This document shows positions 1 to 24,044 of a stretch of DNA of 64,000 nt, piece by piece. This stretch comes from Thermoplasmatota archaeon (GTDB lineage: Archaea > Thermoplasmatota > Thermoplasmata > Thermoplasmatales > Thermoplasmataceae), in contig JAMCUL010000019.1 of the NCBI GenBank assembly GCA_023381355.1, positions 1 to 64,000 on the forward strand, written 5' to 3'. The notes under the pieces were generated by a model, which saw only the letters and a program-made list of their open reading frames with translations, was not told the origin of the DNA and ran no database searches. Within the stretch, counting starts at the first letter, position 1. Every line of letters begins with the position of its first letter. The translations under genes were made by a program, and so were the position numbers.

Positions 1-83
1 AGAGGATCGCATGGATGAACTCAGAAATATTCAGAAGGAGAGGCAAAAGAGAAACAGCACTAAAGGAAAGATAAATAAATCGG

Positions 84-437
84 ATGCAATTACATGATTA
101 CCATAGAACTTTTTTCATAGAAGGATACATGACAAGAAAAGAAGAGATGAGAAAGGTATCCAGAGACTGTTATGTATCATACAGGGGAAACAGGTATTCT
201 GTTCCATGGAAATATGCAGGTAGAGAGTGCAGGATCATAGAGGAATCATCCATTATCAAAATAGAGATTGATTCCATTGTTGCTGCATCTCATGAGATCA
301 TTACAGGAACTGGAAGGATATCAAGGAAGAAGGAACATTTTGAAGGTCTTCTTAAAGCAGTTAGGGAAGAGAATTTAGCAATATATGAACAGCATGTTGA
401 AACACGTGATCTGAAGAGATATGAAGAGGTGATATGA
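84..437 (+). CDS. IstA-type transposase, C-terminal portion (5' part truncated, frameshifted or outside window)
   Basis: Translated 'RKVSRDCYVSYRGNRYSVPWKYAGRE', typical of the IstA C-terminal domain; directly followed by istB with ATGA-type overlap. Confidence 0.8.
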   Translation: MQLHDYHRTFFIEGYMTRKEEMRKVSRDCYVSYRGNRYSVPWKYAGRECRIIEESSIIKIEIDSIVAASHEIITGTGRISRKKEHFEGLLKAVREENLAIYEQHVETRDLKRYEEVI

Positions 438-1272: not shown

Positions 1273-1427
1273 TTGAGATCAATATACCTTGATCTGAACT
1301 GTTCTAATTCATTTATATTATTACCAATCTCATACTGCTCACCTATGCTTCCATCTTCATTCATTTCCGTAATGTATACGGTACGTTTATGTACATCCAT
1401 TCCAATCAGTATTCTGACCACCTCCAA
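1273..1427 (-). pseudogene. IS110-family transposase N-terminus, truncated by the IS21 element
   Basis: 'ILIGMDVHKRTVYITEMNEDGSIGEQYEIGNNINELEQFRSRYIDLN', typical DEDD/RuvC-like N-terminus; the frame then runs into IS21 terminal sequence. Confidence 0.85.
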
Positions 1428-1605
1428 GTGGTTGGTGAGAGTCTAAAGTCGGAGATATTTCGACAGCCTTCTATTCACCCTTCTTTCAGGGTATTATGTC
1501 GAGACGAAGAGCAGTTAATCTGTAATGCGGCCTCGAAGGCCAAGAGATTAAACGACTGCCTCTCCTACTCTCACGCTGACACCGTCATGCCAACGTGGCC
1601 AAAAG
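1428..1605 (-). ncRNA. Candidate IS110 bridge RNA / left-end non-coding region
   Basis: Non-coding DNA immediately upstream of an IS110 start codon with several inverted repeats: GCAGT-TAATC(1511-1520)/GATTA(1546-1550)+ACTGC(1555-1559) enclosing GGCCT-CGA-AGGCC (1529-1541); ACCCT/AGGGT (1477-1492); GTCG/CGAC (1448-1464). Confidence 0.45.
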
Positions 1606-1960
1606 AACTTTTTTCATGACATCTGCATAGATGATCCAGATTGCCTCCCAATCGCCCATGATCTTTTGCACAGATTAGGTACCTCTTCACAGTTCCATTG
1701 AAATTCCGCATTAAATGATGCATTGGTATACATGCCTGTACACATACTGAACAATCATTACTGGCAAAAACTGATTCAGGTCATGTATTGAGTATTCTTC
1801 CTCGGTAATTGTGTTCCATGTCTTCCTGATAACAGTCCGGATGCCATCAATCCCAGTAAATCAACCATGTTTGAGCAATAAAACTGCATCTTCCGTGACA
1901 ATCATTTGTATCCCAGGTCTTGAAAATTCATGTCGTATAATAGCGAGGAAATAGGTCCCC

Positions 1961-2788
1961 TCATAAATTTGTATAAAACGCCCTCTTCCTTGGAGGAGGA
2001 TTTGCAATCCCGTCAGAAGGGCCATTCTCATTCCTGTATTCCTTGATGTGCACCGGGATCCCGAAAATCTCCATTATACCCTCTGCATCCGGGTCGATTG
2101 TCATCAGGTATTTTCCTTCGAGCCCTGAAATAAGCCTGGAGAGTTCCCTGAAATCACCGGCATCGAAATTTATCTCATACCAGTCAGTGCCGGAATAGGG
2201 TGGATCAAAGTAGAAGAAAACATTCCTGTCGTCATACTTCTTCACAAGATCACGGAAATCCATATTCTCTATTTTCCATCTTGAAACCCGGTTCTTGATC
2301 ATGTCAAACTGATCAAGTGTCTTTGAAATATAGGACATAGCCGCCTTTTCCTTCTTTGTTGCATAGGTATTCCCCATTCCTCCGAATGTCAGGTTCATTC
2401 CGGTAAGGAAGATTACAGATTCCACATCTTTTTCTGGAATCCCTCTTTCCCTGCCCTTTATCTTAATAAAATCTTCAACCTCTGGATCAATTGTCCTTTT
2501 TTTCCAGCTCCCCTCTTCCTCCAGGAGTGAACGTCTCTTTTTTACCCCCTCCTTCAGGAGGAAATATATATTTTCAGGCCTTTTTTGAATATTCGTGAAC
2601 ACATTAATGAGATCTGGATTAAGGTCATTATAAACCGTATACCTGCTTTCTATATTCAGGGACACAGAGCCTGAACCTCCAAAGACATCCACAAAAGTCC
2701 TCCTCCCTGATTTCAAATATGATGCCTGTATATCACTCAGAAGGGCTTTCTTGGAGCCCGGGTACTTCATCAGTCTAATATATTCCAT
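1961..2788 (-). CDS. D12-class (Dam-like) N6-adenine DNA methyltransferase
   Basis: N-terminal 'MKYPGSKKALL', 'VDVFGGSGSVSLNI', catalytic 'FYFDPPYSGTDWY'. Confidence 0.88.
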   Translation of the reverse strand: MEYIRLMKYPGSKKALLSDIQASYLKSGRRTFVDVFGGSGSVSLNIESRYTVYNDLNPDLINVFTNIQKRPENIYFLLKEGVKKRRSLLEEEGSWKKRTIDPEVEDFIKIKGRERGIPEKDVESVIFLTGMNLTFGGMGNTYATKKEKAAMSYISKTLDQFDMIKNRVSRWKIENMDFRDLVKKYDDRNVFFYFDPPYSGTDWYEINFDAGDFRELSRLISGLEGKYLMTIDPDAEGIMEIFGIPVHIKEYRNENGPSDGIANPPPRKRAFYTNL

Positions 2789-3932: not shown

Positions 3933-5276
3933 ATGGACAATGACAATTCAGTCCCGCTGAGTTACAGCAGGAGATGGCGACTCTGGTATTCTTCATACAT
4001 ATCTTCCAACCTTTCTGCGGGACTTTTAAATCCCATGATACCACTCTTCATCTCGATCTATTTTGATCGCTCTGTCATTTTTGTCGGGATAGCCTCGTCC
4101 CTATCATCATTATCTTCTGTAATTGCTCTGATCCTCTGGGGGAATATCTCAGATAATGTGAAGAGGAGGAAAATATTCGTGCTGATTGGATTCCTGGGCA
4201 GCTTTGTATCTCTGTTCCTGATTGCGTTCATTTATACCATTTACGAATACATAGGCGTCCTTGTGATGTACCAGTTCTTCGCAATGGCATCTGTACCGGT
4301 CTCCACCCTTCTTGTCATAGAGAATGAGAACGAAAGCCAGTGGGCAAGGGTTGTGGGAAGTTTCAGCGCAATTTCCACTATTGGCACGGTGCTCGGACTT
4401 GCATTCGGGCTTGTCATTGTAATACAGAACCCGGATTCGATCTCAGTACTAAAAAATATATACCTGATCTCGTCACTATTTTACCTGGTCTCATTCGTAC
4501 TTGCATTCTTTCTGCTGAGGGAATCCACCGTGACGGTAAGAAGGAATTCCATACCGGAAATATTTTCCCTCAGGATGTTTGAACGAAGCAGGTATGCACC
4601 ATCCTATGTTATTCATATTATCAGGCTTTTTGGAAAGAAGAGCCCAGAAAAGATATCCAGTGATCTGAAACTCTATCTTTTGGTATGTATCATGCTTATG
4701 CTCGGATTCCAGCTCTTCTTCACGCCGTATCCTGTTCTTCTCATAGAGAGATTCAATGCAAGCGAGCCGGAAGTATATATGATGTATCTCCTCAACAGCG
4801 CTTTTTCTGTTATCTCTTTCAGGATGTCCTCGGGCTATATCAGGAAGAGGAGCCTTGAAAGGGCCATGTACCTTCCACTCTCATTGAGAGTTGTACTTTT
4901 TTCTGCCACCGCGATCATTCCTTTCTTTGCATTCTATTCATTCCAGATGATGGTGATTGTAATACTTCTCTACGGTTTCATGGGATTCCTGTGGAGCTTC
5001 ATAAGCATCACCCAGATAACCACAGTCACAAGAATGGCATCTTCAAGATTGAGAGGAAGGGCAGTTGGCTACTATAACTCCATACTTGGAGTCGGCCAGA
5101 TTCTTGGAGCCCTGATATCAGGATTCCTAGTTTCGTTTGTTGGATTTGGCTATGATTTCATGATATCTGCAGCAATAGTTCTTCTCGGTCTTGTTGCAGT
5201 GGCCAGGATGGGATTTAAGATAAAATCCCTTGATAGCGTAAAAACACAAATCAACAAGGAAGCTACTTCACAGTGA
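3933..5276 (+). CDS. MFS transporter
   Basis: About 12 hydrophobic segments; 'LWGNISDNVKRRKIFVLIG' MFS loop 2-3 motif. Confidence 0.85.
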   Translation: MDNDNSVPLSYSRRWRLWYSSYISSNLSAGLLNPMIPLFISIYFDRSVIFVGIASSLSSLSSVIALILWGNISDNVKRRKIFVLIGFLGSFVSLFLIAFIYTIYEYIGVLVMYQFFAMASVPVSTLLVIENENESQWARVVGSFSAISTIGTVLGLAFGLVIVIQNPDSISVLKNIYLISSLFYLVSFVLAFFLLRESTVTVRRNSIPEIFSLRMFERSRYAPSYVIHIIRLFGKKSPEKISSDLKLYLLVCIMLMLGFQLFFTPYPVLLIERFNASEPEVYMMYLLNSAFSVISFRMSSGYIRKRSLERAMYLPLSLRVVLFSATAIIPFFAFYSFQMMVIVILLYGFMGFLWSFISITQITTVTRMASSRLRGRAVGYYNSILGVGQILGALISGFLVSFVGFGYDFMISAAIVLLGLVAVARMGFKIKSLDSVKTQINKEATSQ

Positions 5277-7617
5277 TTGAGAAGTCCACTCCTTCCCACT
5301 TTTTCGATTCAGGCCAGTAGAAAGTGAACAGGAGTTCTGTGCTATCATTCTGGGGAGTTTTCAGATCTGCATAAAATACCCCATGATCCGCCATTGCCGA
5401 AGATTTATCGCTGACTGTATGCCATTTATCCCATGAATAGTGCACGGAAAACTGGCTTCCCGAAATGAAGCGTACTGTCCTCCCACTCTCTATCCACCTG
5501 AACCTGTTCTTGAAGCTCCAGATTGAGATGGAGTTCTGTGTTCCATTTTTGGCGTATCTTTCGCTAACCGTTTCAATCCTGTCAAATATCTCACCCTGTT
5601 CAATGGACTTTGCCAGTTTAAGGTATTCAGCGTGTGCCCATACAAGCGGCATGGCTGACCCTGATGGTTTCCCGTTGTAAAGTCCTCTGGATGGTATGTC
5701 ATCTGAATCCCATACCTGCTCGGGTATCATCCCATTTTTGCCGGTCTCTTTTTCCATCACGTGAAGCAGTTTTTCAGCCTCTTCCATGTTGCCTGCGGCC
5801 ATTTCATACATGCCCCTCTCACCCACGAGCAGTGGCCATCCTCTTCCCCTTCCAGTGCCGTCAAACGGCCTTCCGTCATCATGCTCCCCGTACCCATCGT
5901 GATTGTATCTATGCCATACAGGGCCGTTCTTGGTTTCAGTTTTGAGAAGCATATCGATAACTTTCACAGTATTGATTATCCTGGGATCATCCCACGCCCT
6001 AATGCCGAACCTCACCAGTGCAAGAGACCCGGTGCTGATGATGTCAGAGCTTGAGAATAGGTCCTTGCCTCCACTCCTGTTCTTTATGGGTATTATCCCT
6101 CTCTCCCTGTAATCCTGCACGTCCGAAGGCGCAATTCTAATGTAATGCCCCTCAACACCTGCCTGCTTTGCGAATTCCGACCCCTTCACATATGTCCATC
6201 TCTCTATGTTTGAGTTGTATGAATCAGCAACTTCACGGTAGAACTTTGACCTTCTTCCACCCATTGAATCTTCCATCTCCGCGGCACATATCAGTGCAGA
6301 GATCTCCACGCCTATTGTAAAAGGGGAATACCCACCATCCTCTTCCCATCTATCCTGATCTGTGGCAGGACCTGACAGGCATATATAATTTGCCGCCTTC
6401 CTGATCATGTGGATGTAATCCGGCAGGTTAACCAGATCCCTTCTCCACAGCATGTATGCAAGTATTACTGGAAATGCGGCCTCATCCATCTGTATTCCCT
6501 TCCAGTATGGCTTGCCGTCAAGCCACATGTTCTGTGGCCAGTGACCGTCGGGTTCCTGGGTTGATCTCAGGTATGAAAGTGCCTCCATAGAATCCTGGAA
6601 GTCTCCACTTGCGAGCAACGCCTCTGATGCTTCAACCATGTCCCTTGGCCATATGAGATGGTAACCTCCGATATCGTTGTCTCCCTTGGAATAGCCCCAT
6701 GGAATTGATAGACTCGCAATGATTCCGCCCTTGAACTGGAAGCCGGCCTGATGACTCTTTATCACGCTCATGCTTCTCCTGGATAGCCTGTATTTGGATG
6801 TATTGGGAATTTCTCCCTCAAGCGTGGAATAGAATGATTTCCACCTCTCGGTGAAGAGACGGAGCTTGTTTTCCCAGCCCTCGGAGTAGCTCAGGAGTGT
6901 CTTGAGGGCAGCCTCTTCCGGAGTATCTCCGAATCCAATGAAGAAAGTGAATTCCGAGGATTCATTTATCTCGGCAGTCATGGCTATATTTCCATCATTC
7001 GCGTGATCATAGGAGGTGTCCAGCTGAAATTCCTTACTCAGGAGCTGCCATCCGTCTGAATAACCCGAGTATCCAATGCTCATTGCACTCTGTGCCGATG
7101 GCGAGAAGAGGGCCATGAATGCTCCATCCCTTGTTGCAATCATGAACCTGCTTCCCTTGTAATCCATTATCCAGCCGCTATTCCCATAACCGGAATTCTT
7201 GATGTGTGGTGCAGTGAGTGAGTATATTTTCAGGTTCTCTCCAGAGAGATCATTGAACTTTACATGCTCAATCAGGACATCCCTTTCAGGATCTGAGAAC
7301 ACCGTCTTCCTCAATTCATATTTTCCCCCTCTGTGCCTGTTGACAATGATGAATGCGGGAATGCCGTCCTCAATACAGTCGGTTTCAGAATCTGTCTCCC
7401 TTTTCTCCTCTGAAAAGAATTTGTCTCCAACTATGAGATATTCATGATCTCTTGTATTGGCGATATCTATTCTCGGATAGAAAATTTCATTGATTATCCC
7501 ATGAGATACTGTATACCACACCCGACTGGAGGCAGAGATTGCTGATCCAACCCCATCCTTTGCACTAGATGTCCATCTCGGTTCGATTCCCGGCTTTCCT
7601 GGCGGCTCCATTCCCAT
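5263..7617 (-). CDS. Glucoamylase / glucodextranase-like GH15 glycoside hydrolase
   Basis: 'YHLIWPRDMVEASEALLA', 'DGHWPQNMWLDGKPYWKGIQMDEAAFP', 'PVWHRYNHDGYGE', 'GRGWPLLVGERGMYEMAAG'. Confidence 0.93.
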   Translation of the reverse strand: MGMEPPGKPGIEPRWTSSAKDGVGSAISASSRVWYTVSHGIINEIFYPRIDIANTRDHEYLIVGDKFFSEEKRETDSETDCIEDGIPAFIIVNRHRGGKYELRKTVFSDPERDVLIEHVKFNDLSGENLKIYSLTAPHIKNSGYGNSGWIMDYKGSRFMIATRDGAFMALFSPSAQSAMSIGYSGYSDGWQLLSKEFQLDTSYDHANDGNIAMTAEINESSEFTFFIGFGDTPEEAALKTLLSYSEGWENKLRLFTERWKSFYSTLEGEIPNTSKYRLSRRSMSVIKSHQAGFQFKGGIIASLSIPWGYSKGDNDIGGYHLIWPRDMVEASEALLASGDFQDSMEALSYLRSTQEPDGHWPQNMWLDGKPYWKGIQMDEAAFPVILAYMLWRRDLVNLPDYIHMIRKAANYICLSGPATDQDRWEEDGGYSPFTIGVEISALICAAEMEDSMGGRRSKFYREVADSYNSNIERWTYVKGSEFAKQAGVEGHYIRIAPSDVQDYRERGIIPIKNRSGGKDLFSSSDIISTGSLALVRFGIRAWDDPRIINTVKVIDMLLKTETKNGPVWHRYNHDGYGEHDDGRPFDGTGRGRGWPLLVGERGMYEMAAGNMEEAEKLLHVMEKETGKNGMIPEQVWDSDDIPSRGLYNGKPSGSAMPLVWAHAEYLKLAKSIEQGEIFDRIETVSERYAKNGTQNSISIWSFKNRFRWIESGRTVRFISGSQFSVHYSWDKWHTVSDKSSAMADHGVFYADLKTPQNDSTELLFTFYWPESKKWEGVDFSITVK

Positions 7618-17499: not shown

Positions 17500-17560
17500 T
17501 TTTAAAAATAAACACTATGACTGGCAGATTCTTTCCTGTTTTTTGTACACAATATACCAT

Positions 17561-17641
17561 TTCATCCCTCCGCCGGCATTACCCGGATCAGGTTCAAAGG
17601 GTCGATCCAACGGATCCTCTCAGCCTTTCAGCTCCCCTGAA
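17561..17641 (-). promoter_or_regulatory. TPP riboswitch (THI element)
   Basis: Reverse complement reads TTCAGGGGAGCTGAAAGGCTGAGAGGATCCGTTGGATCGACCCTTTGAACCTGATCCGGGTAATGCCGGCGGAGGGATGAA: contains GGGGAGC, GCTGAGA, CCCTTTGAACCTGATC-GG-TAATGCCGGCG-AGGGA and a closing P1 TTCA/TGAA. Confidence 0.96.
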
Positions 17642-17784
17642 CTGATGCCATATCGATATGAAAGCAATAAACTTTTTCGGATAACTTATTGGCTACATTC
17701 TTTAATGTCGCGTGGGAACTCCTGTAATTCTAATATCCGAAAAACAATGGAATGTATTTTAATCCTGAATAACATGTAAAGGCA

Positions 17785-22192: not shown

Positions 22193-24044
22193 CAACAGCA
22201 GTACCTTTCCTGTATTCCGACATCTCCCTCCCTGATGCGAGAGCCCTTCCCACTGCCACAAGATTATCCCCCTGATCTACAACAAGGACATCATTATAGG
22301 GTATGATATCCGGGTCGCATTCTACGATAAACTGGAAGAATACGGATTTTCCGACTGAATTGAACGTGGCGCTTTCTTCTGTGACCCTGACCCTGTTCCT
22401 TATCCCACCATGCAGTCTCCTGATGATCTCGCCCCCGGTCATTGTGAGTGCAAGATATCCATCATGAGCCCTCATGGTTGCAATTATCCCTTCACCATTC
22501 CTCACTGTTCTTATCCTTCCGGTGTTCCTCGATATATCAATTATGACACCGTCCGGGAACAGCGCTTTCCCAGAACCACGGCCAAACTGTACATCAGCCA
22601 GGAAACGGATCTTTTCCAGCGGGAAATATCTTGACCTAGCTGATTCCTCATCCACCTCAAATTCATCCCCATGATAGGATCCCGGGATTCTTTCCGAGAC
22701 TATTGACTGTTGCACCGGATAGGATTCATCCATCTCTGCAGGTACCATGATTTCTCCAAGGGGAAACATGAAATTGCGGTCTGAATGCTCATATATCCGC
22801 CTGATGAATTTCTGGTCCAAACCAGCAGGAAGGCAGTATCTTGGGTGAATCTTCACATAATTGCCTCCCGATTCCCTTATCTTCTCGATACGCCTGCCAT
22901 ACGGGGAGAGGGACGAAAGGCTGTCGAAGTAAAAGAACGGGGATTTCCTGTACAGTTCGGTATATTTCTCAATGACATGGGAATAGTCCATTATCCTGCG
23001 AAACGCATTCATCAGGGATGGGTGGGAACGTGCCTTCCCCTCCACATACTGCCACAGGGTCTGTTCCCTGATCCTTTCCCTGATCTCTCCCAGTTCCATG
23101 TATATTGCAAACAGGTTATGCTCTGCAAGAGCCTTCTTCCTCTCTTCATCCTTGAGAGATTTCAGCTCAGTGGCAGTAAACCTGTCATGAAGTGGGGACC
23201 ATATGGGAATTTCCACAATTTCTTTGAGGTCCCTCGTGCCTTCCGGAAAAAGGAGCCTGTCATCCTTTGCATATTTAACATAGGAAGCTGAATCAAACAT
23301 ATCCACCCCGAGAAGGACTGCCATGCCCATGAACATTGGGTGCCCTCCTCCAAAAAGATGAACAGGCCTCGCAAAATCTGAATTTATCTTGGAAGTTAAT
23401 ATTATGTCTACAAGCTCACTGTACCTGTACTGCTCAAGTAGCGGAACAACTCCGCCTATTGGGAGATAGGATGCCTGAGAGCGTGACATCAGTATGGCAC
23501 TCTCCCTTCTCAAATCAGGATATATTGACCCCTGTATCGGCCCGGCGATATTGGCAGATTCAGCGATCCCTGATACCTCATCCATCCTCCTCCTTGTTTC
23601 GTATACTGCATTTGAGGCTTCTTCGAAGGTGTGATCCGGAGTTGTAAAAATATCCAGGATCGTGGAAATATCACTGCCTATGTCCACCTGAAACTTCACG
23701 GTGTCGGTATTCTGGAATTCCACATCTCCATATACGTAGCTCTGGAATGTCCCGGAATCGGTCATTATGGGCCCATCAAAGCCAACAACCGAATGCAGTC
23801 CGTCTCTGAGAACCTTTTCCTTCAGTTCAGGTGTCCGCCTAATTATATAACTGTTCGTTATCAGGCACTGCATCCCCATCTTCTTCATGGTTTCCATAGG
23901 AAGCGTCCGGATGTTCGGGTTTATCACAGGCATTATGTTTGGAGTGTCGATCCTTCCGTGCGGGGTATTGAATCTCCCTATCCTGGCCAGCCCTTCCCTG
24001 TGAAGGAGTTCCATTGTTATTTTTTCCTCACCCAGAATGCTCAC
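22164..24044 (-). CDS. tgtA: tRNA-guanine(15) transglycosylase (archaeosine synthesis), TGT plus C-terminal PUA
   Basis: 'GRIDTPNIMPVINPN', 'MTDSGTFQSYVYGDVE', 'PVHLFGGGHPMFMGMAVLLGVDMFDSASY'; C-terminal PUA-like region. Confidence 0.93.
   Translation of the reverse strand: MSILGEEKITMELLHREGLARIGRFNTPHGRIDTPNIMPVINPNIRTLPMETMKKMGMQCLITNSYIIRRTPELKEKVLRDGLHSVVGFDGPIMTDSGTFQSYVYGDVEFQNTDTVKFQVDIGSDISTILDIFTTPDHTFEEASNAVYETRRRMDEVSGIAESANIAGPIQGSIYPDLRRESAILMSRSQASYLPIGGVVPLLEQYRYSELVDIILTSKINSDFARPVHLFGGGHPMFMGMAVLLGVDMFDSASYVKYAKDDRLLFPEGTRDLKEIVEIPIWSPLHDRFTATELKSLKDEERKKALAEHNLFAIYMELGEIRERIREQTLWQYVEGKARSHPSLMNAFRRIMDYSHVIEKYTELYRKSPFFYFDSLSSLSPYGRRIEKIRESGGNYVKIHPRYCLPAGLDQKFIRRIYEHSDRNFMFPLGEIMVPAEMDESYPVQQSIVSERIPGSYHGDEFEVDEESARSRYFPLEKIRFLADVQFGRGSGKALFPDGVIIDISRNTGRIRTVRNGEGIIATMRAHDGYLALTMTGGEIIRRLHGGIRNRVRVTEESATFNSVGKSVFFQFIVECDPDIIPYNDVLVVDQGDNLVAVGRALASGREMSEYRKGTAVVINHHVRNN

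What the first reader, a model, noticed from the sequence alone, without database searches (positions are those of the whole stretch)
1428..1605. Candidate archaeal IS110 bridge RNA preserved beside a truncated transposase
Seen: directly upstream of an IS110-type start codon (1427, - strand) is about 180 nt of non-coding DNA dense in inverted repeats. Read 5'->3' on the minus strand, GCAGTCGTTTAATC-TCTT-GGCCTTCGAGGCC-GCATTACA-GATTAACTGC forms an outer stem, an internal loop and an apical hairpin. ACCCTGAAAGAAGGGT and GTCGAAATATCTCCGAC hairpins follow. Known: IS110-group elements encode a bridge RNA in the left-end non-coding region, with internal loops that pair target and donor DNA. Inference: this is a (possibly relic) bridge RNA from an archaeal acidophile-type genome.
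Basis: partly seen in the sequence, partly recalled or inferred. Interest (0 to 1): 0.72.

Follow-up and report, generated by a model that had tools for sequence, protein, structure and literature searches.

The report
Archaeal bridge RNA, reversed guide order
The sequence is the guide RNA of a broken jumping gene in an archaeon, and its relatives form a family in which the same kind of RNA is read in two opposite orders, depending on which way round the gene block sits between the element's ends.

Summary
The finding holds and grows. Window 1428-1624 (minus strand) is the left non-coding end of an IS110-superfamily element whose transposase was cut to about 51 codons by an IS21 element ending at 1272. 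The region recurs in 43 of 117 genomes of the order. A 45-pair structure (5' hairpin, target loop, donor loop) shows strong covariation. Variable loop bases match each copy's own insertion site (left flank n=43, right flank n=17, each 0 of 20,000 permutations; a left-flank hold-out replicates). Donor-loop bases change together with the element ends in four lineages. It is a bridge RNA (seekRNA) by strong inference; expression is untested.

Ends (14-bp subterminal repeats, 7/3-bp extensions) and guide order are IS1111-type, yet the RNA lies upstream of the transposase, the IS110-group position. A sister lineage in the same genome has a homologous RNA and transposase with the block inverted relative to the ends; its guides read in IS110 order. 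Guide order thus appears to follow cassette orientation. New variant of a known kind; the window copy itself is a relic.

The parts
1438..1572 (-). Core of the bridge RNA (target loop + donor loop + closing stem)
   Evidence: Covariance model R1, 145.5 bits (this copy is in the training set); covariation
1572..1597 (-). 5' hairpin P1 (CACG..CGTG), the best covarying helix
   Evidence: 7 of 11 pairs with double changes
1510..1560 (-). Target-binding loop: outer stem GGCAG/CTGC, inner hairpin GGCC..GGCC
   Evidence: 6 of 7 outer pairs with double changes
1542..1554 (-). 5' target guide CGTTTAATCTCTT (complement of core + right target; predicted right target AG-AGATTAAACG)
   Evidence: Rule derived from relatives; this copy's right flank is lost, so untested here
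1520..1527 (-). 3' target guide CATTACAG (left target + core)
   Evidence: Rule from relatives; in this copy 3 of 6 non-core positions match its left flank
1459..1503 (-). Donor-binding loop: stem CTCGACA/TGTCGAA, inner hairpin ACCCT..AGGGT
1496..1500 (-). 5' donor guide GACAT, complementary to left end ATGTC
   Evidence: Changes with the ends in four lineages
1468..1474 (-). 3' donor guide ATAGAAG, identical to right end ATAGAAG
   Evidence: Changes with the ends in four lineages
1604..1624 (-). Left end: core AG (1623-1624) in a 7-bp extension AGATGTC (1618-1624), then subterminal repeat ATGAAAAAAGTTCT (1604-1617)
   Evidence: Homology of all copies stops here
1273..1427 (-). Transposase N-terminal remnant (about 51 codons)
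   Evidence: weak Pfam DEDD match E 0.087, strong DNA homology to L004-L006
124..1272 (+). IS21-family element that cut the transposase: istA 3' part (coding to 437), istB 434-1195, right end at 1272
   Evidence: IstB_IS21 E 1e-78; 93.5% identity to an intact IS21 on contig C1, ending at 1272
1..123 (+). Right end of a second copy of the same IS110-superfamily element, inserted in istA (subterminal repeat 105-118, core AG 122-123)
   Evidence: Same right end as the G104 copies; uninterrupted istA site on contig C1

Best explanation
The region is the bridge RNA (seekRNA) of an archaeal IS110-superfamily element. In intact relatives a DEDD recombinase is expected to bind this RNA. The donor loop pairs with both element ends (5' strand with AGATGTC, 3' strand with CATAGAAG). 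The target loop pairs with the insertion site around the core AG: its 5' strand is complementary to core + right flank, its 3' strand has the sequence of left flank + core. Insertion is scarless at one AG. Ends and guide order are IS1111-type, but the RNA lies before the transposase gene. In a sister lineage the RNA + transposase block is inverted relative to the ends, which gives the IS110 guide order. Shown here by comparison: structure, ends, core, empty sites, guide/site and guide/end co-variation. Inferred from the IS621 and ISEc11 literature: transcription, binding, recombination. The window copy is a relic that can no longer make a recombinase.
For: Covarying two-loop structure. Guide/flank agreement beyond all 20,000 permutations on both sides, opposite order null; hold-out left p 2e-5. 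Donor guides follow the ends in four lineages, best of 24 assignments on each side. Ends, core and scarless empty site. DEDD residues and SG motif invariant among intact relatives; NCBIfam 'IS110 family RNA-guided transposase' 233 bits over a cut-off of 140. IS4321, an IS1111 element, shows the same end layout and guide order. Flipped sister lineage with IS110 order: left p<2e-5, right p 0.003, one change of polarity on the tree.
Against: No expression or binding data. This copy's own flank match is weak (3 of 6 non-core, left; right lost). The right-side match needs an offset of 0-2 nt between copies. The right hold-out (n=4) is not significant (p 0.08). Element L004 sits at a left flank that fits its guide poorly (2 of 6).
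Confidence: 0.88

Rival explanations
1. Ordinary IS110-group (IS621-like) bridge RNA: left-end RNA, 5' guide strand equal to the left target.
For: RNA upstream of tnp, as in most IS110-group elements (PMC11208160, PMC11187229).
Against: Guide test in that order is null (p 0.1-0.5) while the reverse order is strong; 14-bp subterminal repeats with 7/3-bp extensions; transposase nearer to IS1111-type rows than to IS621 or ISEc21, though those two are long branches.
Confidence: 0.05
2. A structured cis-regulatory leader or attenuator of the transposase mRNA, not a guide.
For: It lies directly before the gene's GGAGGTG motif; structure is conserved.
Against: A leader does not predict that loop bases match unrelated flanking DNA or change with the element ends. 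Both roles may coexist.
Confidence: 0.04
3. A DNA structure: hairpins in the element end recognised by the transposase, never an RNA.
For: Dense inverted repeats beside the element end; no expression data.
Against: Two-loop layout with stems that covary, loops that vary with the target, and G-U pairs in the stems; homologous placement to experimentally proven seekRNAs.
Confidence: 0.02

Closest known systems
IS1111 group (ISEc11, ISKpn4, ISPa11; IS4321/IS5075) and its seekRNA (PMC11187229; IS4321 read here as L100)
   Same: Subterminal inverted repeats, 7-bp left and 3-bp right extensions, guide order (complement of right target first, left target second), scarless insertion, DEDD transposase.
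   Different: There the RNA is downstream of tnp; here it is upstream and no room is left downstream. Transposase about 370-390 aa instead of 330-350; about 26% identity to IS4321.
IS110 group (IS621, ISCro4, ISEc21) and its bridge RNA (PMC11208160, PMC11208158)
   Same: RNA in the left end before tnp; target loop followed by donor loop; guides overlap at a dinucleotide core (AG here is CT on the other strand, as in IS621).
   Different: Opposite guide order relative to tnp and long subterminal repeats; remote transposase (best PDB hits ISCro4 E 8e-11 and IS621 E 3e-7).
Exceptions listed by Siddiquee et al.: ISMtsp17 (IS1111 type with upstream non-coding region), ISHvo10 and ISAcp5 (long non-coding regions on both sides)
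   Same: An IS1111-type element with the non-coding region upstream is recorded.

Membership tests
IS110 superfamily (DEDD RNA-guided transposases) | DEDD RuvC-like domain plus Transposase_20 domain with conserved S-G | tested here: met
   Intact relatives: PF01548 and PF02371 over cut-off; D4, E51, D89, D92, S256, G257 invariant. The window copy keeps only the first ~51 codons.
IS110 superfamily (DEDD RNA-guided transposases) | Scarless insertion at a short core, no target duplication | tested here: met
   Gapless empty-site paralogue with one AG; istA site
Bridge RNA / seekRNA | Structured RNA with target guides matching both strands of the insertion site | tested here: met
Bridge RNA / seekRNA | Donor guides matching the element ends | tested here: met
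[quoted passage not shown]
   No transcript or protein data
IS110 group (IS621-like) | RNA upstream of tnp, in the left end | tested here: met
IS110 group (IS621-like) | 5' guide strand equals left target, 3' strand complements right target | tested here: not met
   Null in window lineage; met in the sister lineage L001/L154-L159
IS110 group (IS621-like) | Subterminal repeats absent or very short | tested here: not met
   14-bp perfect repeat ATGAAAAAAGTTCT in G104 copies
IS1111 group | Subterminal inverted repeats of about 11-13 bp with 7/3-bp extensions | tested here: met
   IS4321 control 12-bp repeat
[quoted passage not shown]
   IS4321 read by eye shows the same order
IS1111 group | RNA downstream of tnp, in the right end | tested here: not met
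   About 26 nt between tnp stop and right end in G104
IS1111 group | Transposase groups with IS1111-type transposases | tested here: inconclusive
   Archaeal rows fall with repeat-bearing elements, IS621 and ISEc21 outside, but these are long branches
Rfam families | Match to any of 4227 models | tested here: not met
   No match up to E=1 in 1200-1800

The most novel reading that the evidence does not exclude
The opposite guide orders of IS110 and IS1111 elements are not two mechanisms: they follow from the orientation of one RNA-plus-recombinase cassette between the two ends. This archaeal clade holds both orientations with homologous RNAs and transposases, and the window lineage joins IS1111 ends and order to the IS110 position of the RNA.
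Probability: 0.6. Interest if true: 0.75.

Novelty: new variant of a known kind. Interest (0 to 1): 0.62.

Why it matters
Siddiquee et al. suggested that the reversed guide order may mean different mechanics in the two families; Durrant et al. proposed that the RNA moved between the element ends. This clade offers intermediate states (IS1111 ends and order with an upstream RNA; a sister with the cassette inverted), so the question can be tested with a pair of close relatives. It also provides archaeal candidates for RNA-guided recombinases.

Tried and rejected
IS621 guide order for the window lineage: no signal. Rfam: nothing in the region. Empty site for the window's own copy: none found; for L018: none. 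Treating contigs C20 (left half, L004) and C19 (right half, window 1-123) as one element: the two junctions lie about 560 bp apart in istA, so there are two copies or a deletion; unresolved. RNAalifold alone missed the donor loop and paired the left end with the CTCCGAC strand, judged spurious; the structure used was drawn by hand from the alignment. Naming the organism by genome contigs failed (no answer). The record used by the paper for ISEc11 is not held, so IS4321 served as IS1111 control. Archaeal 16S is absent from the incomplete genome. Transposase fold prediction was not run: family membership is already clear.

Full report
What is there. The window is the start of contig C19 of an incomplete genome of 1.57 Mb in 24 contigs. 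It is archaeal: an archaeosine tRNA-guanine transglycosylase lies in the window itself (22701-24014) and the genome holds Alba. On the minus strand 1427-1273 encodes the first ~51 codons of an IS110-type transposase. Homology to an IS21 element (istA 3' part, istB) ends at 1272, so IS21 cut the transposase. Upstream, 1428-1624 is non-coding.

Boundaries. Three copies >99% identical in the complete genome G104 begin AGATGTCATGAAAAAAGTTCT and end AGAACTTTTTTCATAGAAG, with unrelated flanks. Many copies share these ends; the complete ones are mostly 1356-1411 bp. For copy L014 an uninterrupted paralogue of the site exists in the same genome: gapless alignment, a single AG. So the core is AG, insertion is scarless, and the window's left end is 1624. 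Window 1-123 is the right end of a second copy, inserted in istA; the intact istA on contig C1 reads CAGTACC-AG-GATACATGAC there.

Structure. 43 of 117 genomes of the order hold the region. On 34 aligned copies a 45-pair structure (5' hairpin; target loop; donor loop) has 90.7% standard pairs against 33-43% when slid by 1-3 columns, 119 double-change cells against 39.8 in shuffles, and 21 pairs with double changes; none of these was reached in 500 shuffles. The structure was drawn on this alignment, which favours the percentage of paired cells but not the double changes. A model built from 31 copies finds further copies across the phylum, including two in more distant families (G395, G332) and the sister elements L001/L002, none of which was in the training set.

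Target guides. The 3' strand of the target loop resembles the left flank plus AG; the reverse complement of the 5' strand resembles AG plus the right flank. Re-pairing guides and flanks at random 20,000 times never reached the observed agreement (left n=43: 0.63 against 0.33 for the three bases next to the core; right n=17: 0.75 against 0.47 over 7 bases, offsets 0-2). The opposite order, as in IS621, gave p of 0.1-0.5. A hold-out of 15 further copies repeats the left result (p 2e-5); its right side has only four copies and is not significant (p 0.08). Single cases: L018 AGCCATCAT 9/9, L088 AGGTATTG 8/8, and L150 from a distant family (left CTTTCGG against CCTTCGG, right AACTACT 7/7, core GG).

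Donor guides. In four lineages the donor loop changes with the ends: GACAT with AGATGTC and ATAGAAG with CATAGAAG; GATTTC with AGAAATC and ATAGGAG with CATAGGAG; TATCATC with GGATGATA and ATAGAGG with CATAGAGG; GACACC with AGGTGTC and ATAGTAG with CATAGTAG. The true assignment is the single best of 24 for each side. Individual copies can deviate: L010 has end TAGTAG but guide TAGAAG.

A flipped sister. The intact IS110 copies of this genome (L001 on C7, L002 on C8) have an RNA that model R1 recognises (46 and 40 bits) and a related transposase (45% identity to the G104 protein). Their ends are exchanged relative to tnp: the CATAGTAG end is upstream, the AGGTGTC end downstream. In tnp orientation their guides read left target first, the IS110 order: left p<2e-5 (n=14, two with the same flank), right p 0.003 (n=6), opposite order null. 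On the transposase tree the two polarities need one change; with L150 as outgroup the flipped form looks derived, support 85/90, which is modest.

Comparison with known systems, made last. Siddiquee et al. (PMC11187229) define the IS1111 group by subterminal repeats with 7/3-bp extensions, an RNA usually downstream of tnp, and a guide order opposite to IS110. Durrant et al. (PMC11208160) place the RNA in the left end for IS110 and in the right end for IS1111 and infer that it moved. I read IS4321 directly: ends and guide order as in the window lineage, RNA downstream. The window lineage meets the IS1111 criteria for ends and guide order and fails that for RNA position; it meets the IS110 criterion for RNA position and fails that for guide order. 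I file it in the IS110 superfamily as a new variant that works like IS1111, in neither group by strict criteria. An IS1111 type with an upstream non-coding region (ISMtsp17) is named in that paper, so that single trait is not wholly new; supplementary tables could not be read, and no held paper describes an archaeal bridge RNA of this kind.

Limits. No expression data. The window copy is a relic: its transposase is gone, its left flank matches the guide at 3 of 6 non-core positions, its right flank is lost, and no intact copy of the window polarity was seen in this incomplete genome. It could act only with a recombinase supplied by another copy.

Noticed in passing
window 1-123 and L004 (contig C20): Right end of a second copy sits in istA; the left half on C20 sits at another istA site about 560 bp away, although the C20 copy's guide fits the window-side site (GTACC-AG-GATACA) better. 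Two copies, or one copy with an adjoining deletion made by the recombinase.
   Followed up: partly
start of tnp in most copies, e.g. window 1400-1427, L001 and L002: After the GGAGGTG motif the expected start codon is often an Ile codon (ATA, ATC, ATT); L001 has ATG where the near-identical L002 has ATC. Possible rare start codons that keep expression low.
   Followed up: no
L151, L157 (G069, G072): A flipped-type element lies head to head with a window-type element, sharing one core dinucleotide; the guide of the former resembles the end of the latter, as if it had targeted it.
   Followed up: no
L014 (G050): This copy is inserted in an IS630-type transposase gene at the FWDN region; empty paralogues exist in the same genome. 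Targets in other insertion sequences recall ISEc21, which targets IS3 transposase genes.
   Followed up: partly
L002 right flank, L017, L019: The site TTTTAAGCGAATACT flanks a flipped-type copy and fits the guides of window-type copies L017 and L019: a shared hot spot.
   Followed up: no
window 17547-17648 (-): TPP riboswitch, 70.6 bits.
   Followed up: no
window 1961-2788 (-): Dam-like adenine methyltransferase beside the insertion-sequence cluster, below the curated cut-off.
   Followed up: no
window 5263-7617 (-): Glucan 1,4-alpha-glucosidase-like protein, 696 bits, slightly under the cut-off.
   Followed up: no
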